A stretch of 33,653 nt of DNA, from the NCBI GenBank assembly GCA_903914415.1, contig CAIWOY010000417.1:1-33653 (forward strand), in the 5' to 3' direction. A program made the translations under genes and the position numbers. Positions 30,300-33,137 of the stretch are shown piece after piece; position 1 is the first letter of the stretch; each line of letters begins with the position of its first letter. The stretch comes from an uncultured Phycisphaerales bacterium (lineage in GTDB: Bacteria > Planctomycetota > Phycisphaerae > UBA1845 > Fen-1342). Under the pieces are notes generated by a model. It was not told the origin of the DNA, made no database searches, and saw nothing but the letters and a program-made list of their open reading frames with translations.

Positions 30300-33137
30300 C
30301 TACTCCAACTTGGCGAGGAGGGCGGAGGCTTCGTCGTAGGCGGCTTTGTAGGTGTAGTCGGGCGGGCCGTCGCAGGTGGCGAGGCGGTGGGCTTCCTGGG
30401 CGTGCTCTTTCGCGGCGGGCTTGTCGCCGCGGGCGAAAGCGAGCTTGGCGAGCTCCAGGTGGGCGTCGGCGCCTTGGAGGACGTAGCCGCTGCGCTCGGT
30501 GATGAGCAGGGCCTCCTCGGCCAGGCGCTGGGCTTCGTCCGGCACGCCGGTGGCGGCGCGAAGGCGCGCCAGGTCAGTGAGGATGTCCGCTTCAGCGTCT
30601 ACCGCGTTGCTGCGCCGGCAACGTTCCAGCGCCTCATGCAGGTGGCGTGCGGCGGCAGCGTGCTGTCCGGCGACGCGGTACGCAGCGCCTAGCAGCCAGT
30701 GGGCGCGGATGTAGTCACGCTCGTATGGGTACCGTGTGCGGGCCGTCTCATGTGCCAGTTCCAGCGCGTGGCGAGCCGGACCGATTGCCGATTGCGGTTT
30801 GCAGTTTGCGGCTTGGGACGGCGAGCGCAAGTGGAGCAGTTGGCGCAGGGCGCGGTAGGCCCTTACGACTGACACGTAATTCGTGGCTCCAGGGCCTTGC
30901 TTGTCGAAGACGATCTCTGAAGCGGCCAGTTCCGTTTCGGACTCGGCATACGCGCCGCGGTAGGCCAGCAGCCGACCCAACTCGAGATGTGCATCGGCAT
31001 TTTCCTCTTCTACTCCAAGTTCGCGGCTCAACGCAATGTAGCGGCGCAGGTTGGCCTCAGCGGCCCGCAGGGCGCCGGTAACGAGCTGCTGCGTAGCCAC
31101 GTTCCCCAACCCGATGGCGACGCTGGTCTCGTTGCCACGTTTCTTGTCGATGTCGTTTGATGCGTTAAACAGCGGCACGGCCCGACGGGGCTGGCCGCTG
31201 AGGCTGTAGGAGGTCGCCAGCGTGTTCAGCGTCCAAGCCTGGGCGTTTTCGTTTTCCAGGCGTGGCGGGCGGTCTTCGCCGTCGGGGAAGAGCGCTCGTA
31301 GCAGGTCAATCTCCAACTGGTATGCGCCGAGTTGGAAGTAGAGCGGCTTTGCTAGGCGGTCGCCGTAGAGCGTGAACGCCTCGTGAAACTGCTCGGCGCG
31401 GACGGTGTGGTGATAGAGTTCGATCACCGGGGCCAGGTCTTCCAGGCACGTCACCTTGTCCGGCGGGGGCACGGCGGCGAAGTAACCGCGCAGGCGGGTG
31501 TGGGCGGCGGCGCGGTCCGGCGCGGCTAGCCGGTCGTAGGCGTAGCGGCGGACGATGGGGTGCAGATCGAAGCGGCCCTCCTTGGTGTCGTGGTGCAGCA
31601 GGCCGCGGGCGACGAGGTCGCGCAGGTCGCCGTCCAGATTCACCACAGAGGCACCGAGGCGCCGAGGGGGAGGAGCTTTGTCAGTTCTTTTGTCTCTGCG
31701 GCTCTGTGTCTCTGTGGTTGGCTCAGTTTCCGCCAGCGCCCTCAGCGCGTCGTATTTCACCGGGGTGCGGAAGCAGGCGATGCGGCCGAGCAACGCCCGG
31801 CGGGCCGGCGTGAGGCTGTCGTAGGCGGTCTCGAGCACGTGATTCTGCGGCTGGATGAGATCCCCGCTCAGGCCCAAGCGCTTCGCGGCGGCGATGTCGC
31901 CGGGTTGCTGGAAATCGCCCACGATCAGGCCGGCCAGCAGGCGCAGGCTGAGCGGATGGTAGCCGTACGGTGCGCACGCCTGCTCGATCTCGGTGTGCGT
32001 GCCGCGGATGCCTTGGCCGTGGAAGAAGTTCACGGCATCGGCGGGCTGCATCTGCTGGAGTTCCTCCTCGCGGCAGCCTTGCAGGAATCCGCCGCCTTTG
32101 GCTTCCAGGACGCGCGGACATAGCCGGGTCGTGAGCAGGACCTTAGAGCGAAGGTACGGCTGCAAGGCGACGTTGTAGAGGAACAGCTCGGCCAGCGGTG
32201 AGATGCAGTCGCGGTCGTTGGTTTCCGATCTCGGGTCTCGGGTGTCGGGTGTCGGGACCTCGTCGCCTCGATACGGCGCGTCCAGGCCGCCGAAGGCGCG
32301 GAGCGCGCGCTCGAAACCGTCCAGCACGAGCAGGGTCCCGGGCGCATGGAGCAATTCCAGGAGCGTCGCGACGTTATCAGTCGATGGCCTCTCCGGCTCG
32401 ATCTTCCCGCTGCTGAGGTAATGAAGCGTCTCGGCCAGGAAATGGTCGAAGCTGGCGTCGCCTTCGTAGAAGCTCCACCAGACGACGCGCGGCCAGGCGG
32501 CGGGGGCGACGTCGTGCGTGAGCCAGTGCCAGGCGAGCGCGCTTTTGCCGAAGCCGCCGAGGGCGCGCAGGCTCAGCAGCGGATGGGCAGCGTCGCCGCC
32601 CAGCCAGCGGGTGAGCATTTCGCGCTCGGCGACGCGCCCGGTGAAGTTGGGCGGCATGGGATAGGGATGGGGCAGGAACCAGTCTTCGGGCTGGGGTTCC
32701 TTGGGCGGCTCCGGGGCCGGCGGCTTGCCCAGGGCGGTGAGGAGCTGGCGCCAGGCGAGGTCGAGGTCCGCGCCGGCGGTGAAGTCGATGTGCGTGAGCG
32801 CGCCAATGCGGAGGGGCTTCTCGCAATCCACTTTGAGCAGCGGGATGAGGCGCAAGTCGCGGTTTGCCGGGCTGAGTGTCTGGCCCATGATCGCTTCCAG
32901 CTCGCACCACTCGCTGGCGATGTAGTCGGGCGTGAGGATGAGAAGCGTCTTGGGGCAGTTGCGGACGCCGCGTTCCATTTCCTTGAGGCTTGGCGCGCCG
33001 CGCGTGAAGTCGCGGTAGTCGATGAAGGCGCGCAGGCCAGCCTTTTCGATGCGTTTCAGCAGTTCGCCGCGCACCCAGGCCTTGTCGTGGCTGCTGTAGG
33101 AGATGAAGACGTCGAATTCGTATTCGGTCTGGGGCAT
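30300..33137 (-). CDS. TIR-STAND NTPase-TPR protein
   Basis: A 945-residue multidomain protein. Residues 8 to about 138 form a TIR domain: FDVFISYSSHDKAWV, then LTPDYIASEWCELE, where Glu81 fits the NAD-cleaving Glu position. A Pro-rich linker (139-165) leads to a STAND-type NTPase with P-loop LGGFGKSAL (193-201), Walker B TLLVLDGFE (268-276), sensor LLTTR (334-338) and GYHPLSL (392-398). A winged-helix-like part follows to about 545, then TPR-like helical repeats from about 550 to 940. By analogy with bacterial TIR-STAND proteins, the repeats may sense a phage or stress signal and trigger NAD depletion; that is inferred. Three repeat-derived segments interrupt it in frame (about 293-306, 474-499 and 774-786). 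ATG 33137 is preferred to the TTG at 33143. Confidence 0.88.
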   Translation of the reverse strand: MPQTEYEFDVFISYSSHDKAWVRGELLKRIEKAGLRAFIDYRDFTRGAPSLKEMERGVRNCPKTLLILTPDYIASEWCELEAIMGQTLSPANRDLRLIPLLKVDCEKPLRIGALTHIDFTAGADLDLAWRQLLTALGKPPAPEPPKEPQPEDWFLPHPYPMPPNFTGRVAEREMLTRWLGGDAAHPLLSLRALGGFGKSALAWHWLTHDVAPAAWPRVVWWSFYEGDASFDHFLAETLHYLSSGKIEPERPSTDNVATLLELLHAPGTLLVLDGFERALRAFGGLDAPYRGDEVPTPDTRDPRSETNDRDCISPLAELFLYNVALQPYLRSKVLLTTRLCPRVLEAKGGGFLQGCREEELQQMQPADAVNFFHGQGIRGTHTEIEQACAPYGYHPLSLRLLAGLIVGDFQQPGDIAAAKRLGLSGDLIQPQNHVLETAYDSLTPARRALLGRIACFRTPVKYDALRALAETEPTTETQSRRDKRTDKAPPPRRLGASVVNLDGDLRDLVARGLLHHDTKEGRFDLHPIVRRYAYDRLAAPDRAAAHTRLRGYFAAVPPPDKVTCLEDLAPVIELYHHTVRAEQFHEAFTLYGDRLAKPLYFQLGAYQLEIDLLRALFPDGEDRPPRLENENAQAWTLNTLATSYSLSGQPRRAVPLFNASNDIDKKRGNETSVAIGLGNVATQQLVTGALRAAEANLRRYIALSRELGVEEENADAHLELGRLLAYRGAYAESETELAASEIVFDKQGPGATNYVSVVRAYRALRQLLHLRSPSQAANCKPQSAIGPARHALELAHETARTRYPYERDYIRAHWLLGAAYRVAGQHAAAARHLHEALERCRRSNAVDAEADILTDLARLRAATGVPDEAQRLAEEALLITERSGYVLQGADAHLELAKLAFARGDKPAAKEHAQEAHRLATCDGPPDYTYKAAYDEASALLAKLE
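30783..30817. repeat. Five-unit 7-base array inside the TIR-STAND-TPR gene (TPR region)
   Basis: On the plus strand the units are GATTGCC, GATTGCG, GTTTGCA, GTTTGCG and GCTTGGG: five in register with a strict 7-nt period. On the coding strand they translate as part of SQAANCKPQSAIG (about residues 774-786), between two TPR-like helices. The frame is not broken. Confidence 0.65.
31642..31718. repeat. 77-bp inverted-repeat element inside the TIR-STAND-TPR gene
   Basis: The ends match as an inverted repeat: ACCACAGAG at 31642-31650 pairs with CTCTGTGGT at 31710-31718. The pairing continues imperfectly inward for about 25 bp on each side, with CAGAG/CCGAG-like 8-base steps. Coding-strand residues about 474-499 (TTETQSRRDKRTDKAPPP and the next few) come from it. 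It resembles the 'cacagag..cacggag' palindromic repeats common between genes in some bacteria, here kept in frame between NTPase and winged-helix parts. Confidence 0.6.
32224..32258. repeat. Five-unit 7-base array inside the TIR-STAND-TPR gene (NTPase region)
   Basis: On the plus strand the units are TCCGATC, TCGGGTC, TCGGGTG, TCGGGTG and TCGGGAC. The coding strand translates them within PTPDTRDPRSETNDRD (about residues 295-310), between Walker B and the sensor strand, probably in a surface loop. The unit sequence is unrelated to the array at 30783 but has the same 7-nt period. Confidence 0.65.

What the first reader, a model, noticed from the sequence alone, without database searches (positions are those of the whole stretch)
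30300..33137. TIR-STAND-TPR gene that has absorbed three repeat elements in frame
Seen: one intact 945-codon frame contains two 7-base arrays (30783, 32224) and a 77-bp inverted-repeat element (31642), each at a likely inter-motif loop, with all core motifs (TIR Glu81, P-loop, Walker B, sensor, GYHPLSL) preserved. Known: STAND and TIR proteins evolve fast, and in-frame palindromic elements are documented in Rickettsia genes. Inferred: repeat insertion diversifies this probable immune or cell-death protein, or it tolerates expansion at loops. Three independent repeat-derived peptides in one protein is unusual.
Basis: partly seen in the sequence, partly recalled or inferred. Interest (0 to 1): 0.66.

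Follow-up and report, generated by a model that had tools for sequence, protein, structure and literature searches.

The report
Immune-type gene whose loops collect repeats
A bacterial immune-type sensor gene carries pieces of short dispersed repeat DNA in three floppy loops, and its relatives in other bacterial phyla carry different repeats in the same loops, so these loops look like tolerated landing spots for repeat DNA as the gene spreads between bacteria.

Summary
The open frame is real (minus strand, 33137 to 30303, 945 codons, TIR + STAND NTPase + TPR), and repeat-like DNA lies at all three places. The three segments differ in kind.
(1) The 77-bp inverted-repeat element (aa 474-499) is absent from nearly all homologues. 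Its arms recur at about nine other host loci and in 55 of 392 sampled genomes of the phylum. One Pirellulaceae homologue has the same insert in the same place and frame; that host has no other copy by exact pattern search, so the insert probably moved with the gene.
(2) The heptamer array at aa 293-306 adds about nine residues and is shared with the 75%-identical paralogue.
(3) The array at aa 774-786 is not an insertion relative to close homologues.
Homologues in Chloroflexota, Cyanobacteriota and Verrucomicrobiota carry other repeats in these same loops. Period-7 arrays concentrate there (7 of 12 outside the window genome fall in 3% of the protein). In a confident AlphaFold model two of the loops are among the four stretches below pLDDT 50; the third is an inter-helix coil.
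Best reading: permissive loops tolerate local repeats, and horizontal transfer carries them on. Adaptive diversification is not shown.

The parts
30300..33137 (-). TIR-STAND-TPR gene, 945 codons plus stop
   Evidence: Open frame and translation; Pfam TIR_2 and TPR_12; best solved-structure match by fold is 6mfv, a STAND protein with a TPR sensor; plant TIR-NLR RPP1, CED-4, Apaf-1 and Avs3 also match
32742..33110 (-). TIR domain (aa 10-132), with Glu81 retained
   Evidence: Pfam TIR_2 1.8e-22; E81 invariant in the four closest sequences
31758..32645 (-). STAND NTPase core and start of the helical/winged region (about aa 165-460)
   Evidence: Invariant GxGKS 195-199, D273, E276, R338 across 47 homologues; fold
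32220..32279 (-). Loop A (aa 287-306), holding the heptamer array at 32224-32257; the + strand reads GGGTCTCGGGTGTCGGGTGTCGGG, four G3 tracts (G-quadruplex motif)
   Evidence: TRF score 42, expectation 0.001 per gene; shared with paralogue L002, absent from L034, L008 and L009; pLDDT below 50 at 287-305; other heptamers at the same loop in L106 and L119
31642..31718 (.). 77-bp inverted-repeat element with octamer-iterated arms (ACCACAGAGGCACCGAGGCGCCGAG ... CTCTGCGGCTCTGTGTCTCTGTGGT), translated as aa 474-499 (loop B)
   Evidence: 25-nt arms, 84% complementary; absent from L002, L034, L008, L011 and others; dispersed copies in the genome and phylum; same-place insert in L101
30781..30827 (-). 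Loop C (aa 771-785) and the TPR helix start, with a degenerate heptamer array at 30781-30815; not an insertion relative to the close homologues
   Evidence: Equal length in L002 and L034; lag-7 identity 0.82 here, and raised across the family at this loop
30303..31322 (-). C-terminal TPR superhelix (aa 606-945), probable sensor domain
   Evidence: Pfam TPR_12 and others; regular helix pairs, mostly pLDDT above 90

Best explanation
The gene encodes an NLR-like STAND switch: an N-terminal TIR effector (probably an NADase), a nucleotide-binding oligomerisation domain and a C-terminal TPR sensor. It belongs to a subfamily that moves horizontally between phyla. A few surface loops are unconstrained: the TIR-STAND linker, the loop after Walker B, a loop in the winged-helix region, and inter-helix turns of the TPR. 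Short repeat DNA common in the host, such as heptamer or octamer tandem arrays and small palindromic elements, can persist there when it arrives in frame and without a stop. Elsewhere in the gene such events are purged. Once in place the repeat decays by point mutation and travels with the gene, so a recipient genome can hold a repeat that is foreign to it. Shown: repeat content, loop location, recurrence in other lineages, and host-genome copies for several of them. Inferred: neutral tolerance as the cause, transfer of the element together with the gene, and the immune function.
For: Same loops, different repeats: loop A holds (AAATCGG)n/(CAATCCG)n in a Chloroflexota homologue (L106), CAATCCG in an Anaerolineales one (L119) and C-rich hairpin-like inserts in cyanobacteria (L107, L120). 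Loop B holds an unrelated inverted repeat with near-perfect arms in L116. Loop C holds (GAAAATC)n, (GAATATC)n and (AAATCGC)n in L110, L123/L125 and L133. Of 12 period-7 arrays outside the window genome, 7 fall in loops A and C, which make up 3% of the protein (binomial p about 2e-8; with wider limits 6e-6). Loop C has lag-7 identity of at least 0.6 in 14 of 45 homologues without the window, against 4 of 962 control segments; lags 4, 5, 8, 10 and 11 are not raised there. A 7-nt period is not a multiple of three, so amino-acid periodicity does not explain it. Insertion-prone loops in the alignment include 296-303, 469-497, 771-781 and 865, and they coincide with low-confidence or coil stretches of the model. 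Host supply: the L106 host has 466 AATCNGN array sites, the L133 host 73 and the L119 host 16; the L133 host has about 21 copies of its own palindrome; the window host has other heptamer and octamer arrays and about nine other loci with the inverted-repeat arm. Period-7 arrays are also the commonest irregular repeat in flanking intergenic DNA (0.33 per kb, against 0.116 in the gene and 0.042 in flanking ORFs).
Against: The gene has about 2.8 times more period-7 arrays per kb than flanking ORFs (p 0.008, with crude ORF calls and non-independent counts), which pure tolerance does not require. No second large loop-rich gene family was run as a control. Some homologues come from short MAG contigs whose phylum label may be wrong. 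The test counts are not fully independent, because the Anaerolineales rows are related.
Confidence: 0.7

Rival explanations
1. Repeat-driven diversification or phase variation: slippage of heptamers (7 nt, not a multiple of 3) switches the immune gene on and off or retunes the STAND switch, and the loops are kept repeat-rich by selection.
For: Heptamer units shift the frame by one base per copy. Arrays sit in the NTPase and in the TPR sensor. L106 carries a long near-perfect array. The gene is richer in period-7 arrays than neighbouring ORFs.
Against: No array-associated frameshift was found: the break in L136 at loop C is an assembly gap of N, and the breaks in L128, L143 and L007 are not at arrays. 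The window arrays are short and degenerate and have the same length in the paralogue. Arrays lie mid-gene rather than near the start, where SSR phase variation is usually found (PMC4692102, citing Lin and Kussell).
Confidence: 0.1
2. Site-directed insertion: a repeat-mobilising activity prefers these DNA sites rather than selection filtering random insertions.
For: The same loop B received inverted repeats in L116 and in win/L101, and loop A received several repeat classes.
Against: The repeats are of unrelated kinds and no shared target motif is visible in the loops. The insert common to win and L101 is best read as one event: equal 73-bp length, same frame, 73% identity, and no other copy in the L101 host. 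Selection against insertions elsewhere explains the same pattern.
Confidence: 0.07
3. Chance: heptamer-like stretches are low-complexity coding sequence, and only the 77-bp element is real.
For: The 30783 array alone is weak (TRF score 34) and is not an indel.
Against: Array A is significant alone (0.001 per gene), and the family-wide lag-7 signal is concentrated at the same loops.
Confidence: 0.08

Closest known systems
Rickettsia palindromic elements (RPE) and in-frame MITEs (QMITE of Coxiella)
   Same: Small palindromic DNA dispersed in a genome and found in frame inside genes, with the protein apparently kept (PMC10969869, PMC5896051; the original Ogata papers are not held here)
   Different: Here the element has octamer-iterated arms and a variable interior, is found across Planctomycetota, and lies in a horizontally moving STAND gene; several unrelated repeat classes recur in the same loops of one protein family
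Heptameric tandem repeats (heptanucleotide repeats of Calothrix; GGGNATC repeats of Xanthomonas and Nostoc)
   Same: Seven-base units; array A has four G3 tracts, matching the four-unit preference reported in PMC4692102
   Different: Those are mainly intergenic and under-represented in coding regions (PMC4692102); here they recur inside the coding region at fixed loops, with many different units
Antiviral and NLR-like STAND proteins (STAND-TPR 6mfv, Avs, TIR-NLR RPP1)
   Same: Effector - STAND NTPase - repeat sensor layout; among the best fold matches
   Different: No close sequence match to a characterised defence system; PADLOC and NCBIfam hits are partial and, where cut-offs are given, far below them
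DGR-diversified STAND conflict proteins (PMC10907252)
   Same: STAND-type sensors in multicellular bacteria with locally variable segments
   Different: There variation is by error-prone reverse transcription into a C-terminal lectin fold; here variable loops hold tandem and inverted repeats, and a DGR was not looked for

Membership tests
STAND NTPase, NLR-like with TIR and TPR | Walker A (GxGKS), Walker B (hhhhDxhE) and a sensor Arg, conserved across the family | tested here: met
   Invariant G195, G197, K198, S199, D273, E276, R338 in 47 sequences
STAND NTPase, NLR-like with TIR and TPR | STAND-like fold with N-terminal effector and C-terminal repeat sensor | tested here: met
   AF2 model pLDDT 87.9, pTM 0.78; Foldseek top hit 6mfv STAND-TPR E 2.3e-14, though query TM-score only 0.32, probably because domains are placed differently; TIR by Pfam
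TIR NADase | Catalytic Glu in the SxWCxxE-type motif | tested here: met
   SEWCELE with E81, invariant in the four closest sequences
TIR NADase | NAD+ cleavage | not testable with these tools
   Needs an enzyme assay
Characterised anti-phage system | Full-length match to a defence model, or experimental protection | tested here: not met
   Only partial hits, mostly to the TIR domain; flanking genes tested are metabolic; protection not testable here
RPE-like or MITE-like palindromic element | Terminal inverted repeats, several dispersed copies in the same genome | tested here: met
   25-nt arms; about nine other loci, one of them also a paired copy; inverted pairs with 35-341 bp gaps are common in other genomes
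RPE-like or MITE-like palindromic element | Target-site duplication or a cognate transposase | tested here: inconclusive
   Net gain over homologues is 66 nt for a 77-bp element and no duplication is visible; transposase not searched
Heptameric simple-sequence repeat | Tandem 7-nt units above chance | tested here: met
   Array A: 0.001 expected per gene. Array C: weak alone, supported by the family signal
SSR contingency (phase-variable) gene | Copy-number change between relatives producing on/off frames | tested here: inconclusive
   Same length in the paralogue; no array-linked frameshift in the homologues inspected; no population data available

The most novel reading that the evidence does not exclude
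The loops are functional tuning sites of a mobile NLR-like sensor: heptamer and palindrome insertions, drawn from whatever repeats the current host has, are positively selected to change the switch threshold or avoid recognition, giving a repeat-fed diversification route for a bacterial immune gene.
Probability: 0.12. Interest if true: 0.8.

Novelty: new variant of a known kind. Interest (0 to 1): 0.55.

Why it matters
In-frame repeat DNA has been described element by element, notably in Rickettsia. Here several unrelated repeat classes have entered the same few loops of one horizontally moving immune-type protein in several phyla. This gives a natural map of insertion-permissive sites in an NLR-like protein. 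It also gives tracers of transfer, since a repeat foreign to its present host marks where the gene has been. It makes testable whether heptamer arrays in coding DNA are merely tolerated or act as variation devices.

Tried and rejected
Phase variation by heptamer slippage: no array-linked frameshift found. A tree to decide whether the win and L101 inserts are one event: the close clade is star-like and the AU test does not reject win+L101 (p 0.35), so phylogeny did not decide it. Viral contigs and plasmids hold no relative at the limits used. The first nine-sequence alignment was too gappy for a collection scan. The viral structure library gave only generic repeat-protein matches.

Full report
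What is there. The frame lies on the minus strand, from ATG at 33137 to the stop at 30300-30302, 945 codons. Pfam finds a TIR domain (aa 10-132) and TPR repeats. The middle has the STAND NTPase signature by sequence, with GxGKS, LVLDGFE and TTR invariant or nearly so in 47 homologues. An AlphaFold2 model from a 47-sequence alignment has mean pLDDT 87.9 and pTM 0.78. Its best solved-structure match is 6mfv, a STAND protein with a TPR sensor; plant TIR-NLR RPP1, CED-4, Apaf-1 and the phage sensor Avs3 are further down the list. The flanking genes tested are metabolic: myo-inositol-1-phosphate synthase, a class V aminotransferase and oxidoreductases. The host is a planctomycete: its same-genus relative G001 gives the same hit as the record titled Phycisphaerales bacterium fen_1342 (L009 and L131 match identically).

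The three segments. Homologues were found in the same genome (L002, 75% identity), in relatives (L007, L034, L008, L009, L010, L011) and in named genomes of many phyla. Against them the segments behave differently. Aa 474-499, encoded by the 77-bp inverted repeat at 31642-31718, is extra: the homologues read ETE-DGSSAT-LEADL or similar where the window has 28 residues, a net gain of 22. Aa 293-306, the heptamer array, is absent from L034, L008 and L009 but present in L002 (PETRNPRPET). Aa 774-786 is not extra: L002, L007 and L034 have the same length, and the 3' part is a conserved TPR helix start.

Chance. In dinucleotide shuffles of the gene a period-7 array with TRF score 42 or more is expected 0.001 times and one with score 34 or more 0.017 times; any period at score 34 is expected 0.7 times. 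So array A stands alone and array C does not.

The same loops in other lineages. Across 47 non-redundant coding sequences, arrays with lag-7 identity of at least 0.75 over 28 nt number 15; for the other lags tested (4, 5, 8, 10, 11, 13) there are four in all. Ten of the 15 lie at aa 297-301 or 777-780. Leaving out the window and its paralogue, 7 of 12 fall in 3% of the protein (p about 2e-8, or 6e-6 with wider limits). At loop C, 14 of 45 homologues other than the window reach lag-7 identity 0.6, against 4 of 962 control segments. Because seven is not a multiple of three, protein periodicity does not explain this signal. The units differ: AAATCGG and CAATCCG in a Chloroflexota MAG, GAAAATC and GAATATC in Anaerolineales and relatives, AAATCGC in a Verrucomicrobia MAG, and ACCCGAG/AATCGGC in the window. 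Inverted repeats of unrelated sequence sit in loop B of L116, in the TIR-STAND linker of L133 and at aa 865 of L137 and L139. C-rich hairpin-like inserts sit in loop A of two cyanobacteria and in loop A or C of L100 and L106 (by eye). Insertion-prone loops in the alignment include 296-303, 469-497, 771-781 and 865.

Structure. The only stretches under pLDDT 50 in the model are 1-3, 145-149, 287-305 and 476-481; loop C is a coil between helices 749-770 and 785-801.

Where the repeats come from. The iterated arm ACCACAGAG... occurs at about nine other loci of the host, once more as an inverted pair. With one mismatch allowed it occurs in 55 of 392 genomes of the phylum, while the reversed control is nearly zero. 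Elsewhere it is often an inverted pair with a 35-341 bp gap, and 22 of 36 sampled copies have no open frame through them. The heptamer units of the window genes are rare in the host, but other heptamer and octamer arrays are present, about six period-7 arrays at score 42 or more in 300 kb, where shuffles scaled predict about 0.05. The AATCNGN heptamer is abundant in the hosts of L106 (466 sites), L133 (73) and L119 (16). The L133 host has about 21 copies of the palindrome in its gene.

One insert, two hosts. L101, a Pirellulaceae homologue on an 84-kb contig, has the same kind of element at the same place, 73 bp between the same arm bases, same frame, 73% identical, 12 of 26 interior positions alike. 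By an exact pattern search its genome has no other copy. The simplest account is one insertion in an ancestor living in an element-rich genome, then transfer of the gene. The tree is too star-like to prove it (AU p 0.35 for win+L101), and divergent copies in the L101 host could be missed.

Reading. Period-7 arrays are the main irregular repeat of intergenic DNA around these genes (0.33 per kb), rarer in flanking ORFs (0.042) and intermediate in this gene (0.116). This fits a supply of repeats that is purged from most coding sequence but survives in a few disordered loops. The 2.8-fold excess over flanking ORFs (p 0.008) may hint at more, but ORF calls were crude and rows are related. No on/off allele linked to an array was found. 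The immune role is inferred from architecture; no full-length match to a characterised defence system was found.

Literature. In-frame palindromes are known from Rickettsia and Coxiella (PMC10969869, PMC5896051). Heptameric repeats are known, mostly intergenic, with a four-unit preference tied to G-quadruplexes (PMC4692102). Array A, on the + strand, has exactly four G3 tracts, and so has the paralogue (read from the sequences). STAND sensors diversified by retroelements are known (PMC10907252). I found no report of repeats recurring in fixed loops of one STAND family, within the open-access library searched.

Noticed in passing
L002:1501-5190 (-): The same-genome paralogue is fused to about 300 extra N-terminal residues with a serine-hydrolase-like motif (CHSLGG); Pfam gives no hit there, PADLOC gives DUF626_VIII at 1e-9.
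   Followed up: partly
L133:4380-4500: In a Verrucomicrobia homologue the NTPase (aa 146-475) is missing: the TIR is joined in frame, through a 71-bp inverted repeat that is dispersed in that genome, to the winged-helix/TPR part. Looks like repeat-associated deletion between two of the permissive loops.
   Followed up: partly
L136:6288-6297: The contig of a cyanobacterial homologue has a 10-N assembly gap at loop C, which may hide a repeat.
   Followed up: no
L007 (G004), codon equivalent to about aa 373: A single in-frame TAG interrupts an otherwise intact 75%-identical homologue; it is not at a repeat loop.
   Followed up: no
L191:2825-2883: The second paired copy of the element in the host (C187) encloses an octamer array (CCTTATCA)n, so different short-period repeats nest inside one another.
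   Followed up: no
flanks of L102, L106, L113, L135, L137, L139: Heptamer arrays with many unrelated units occur next to these genes, while periods 4, 5, 10 and 11 are absent there: the period 7, not the unit, is what is shared.
   Followed up: partly
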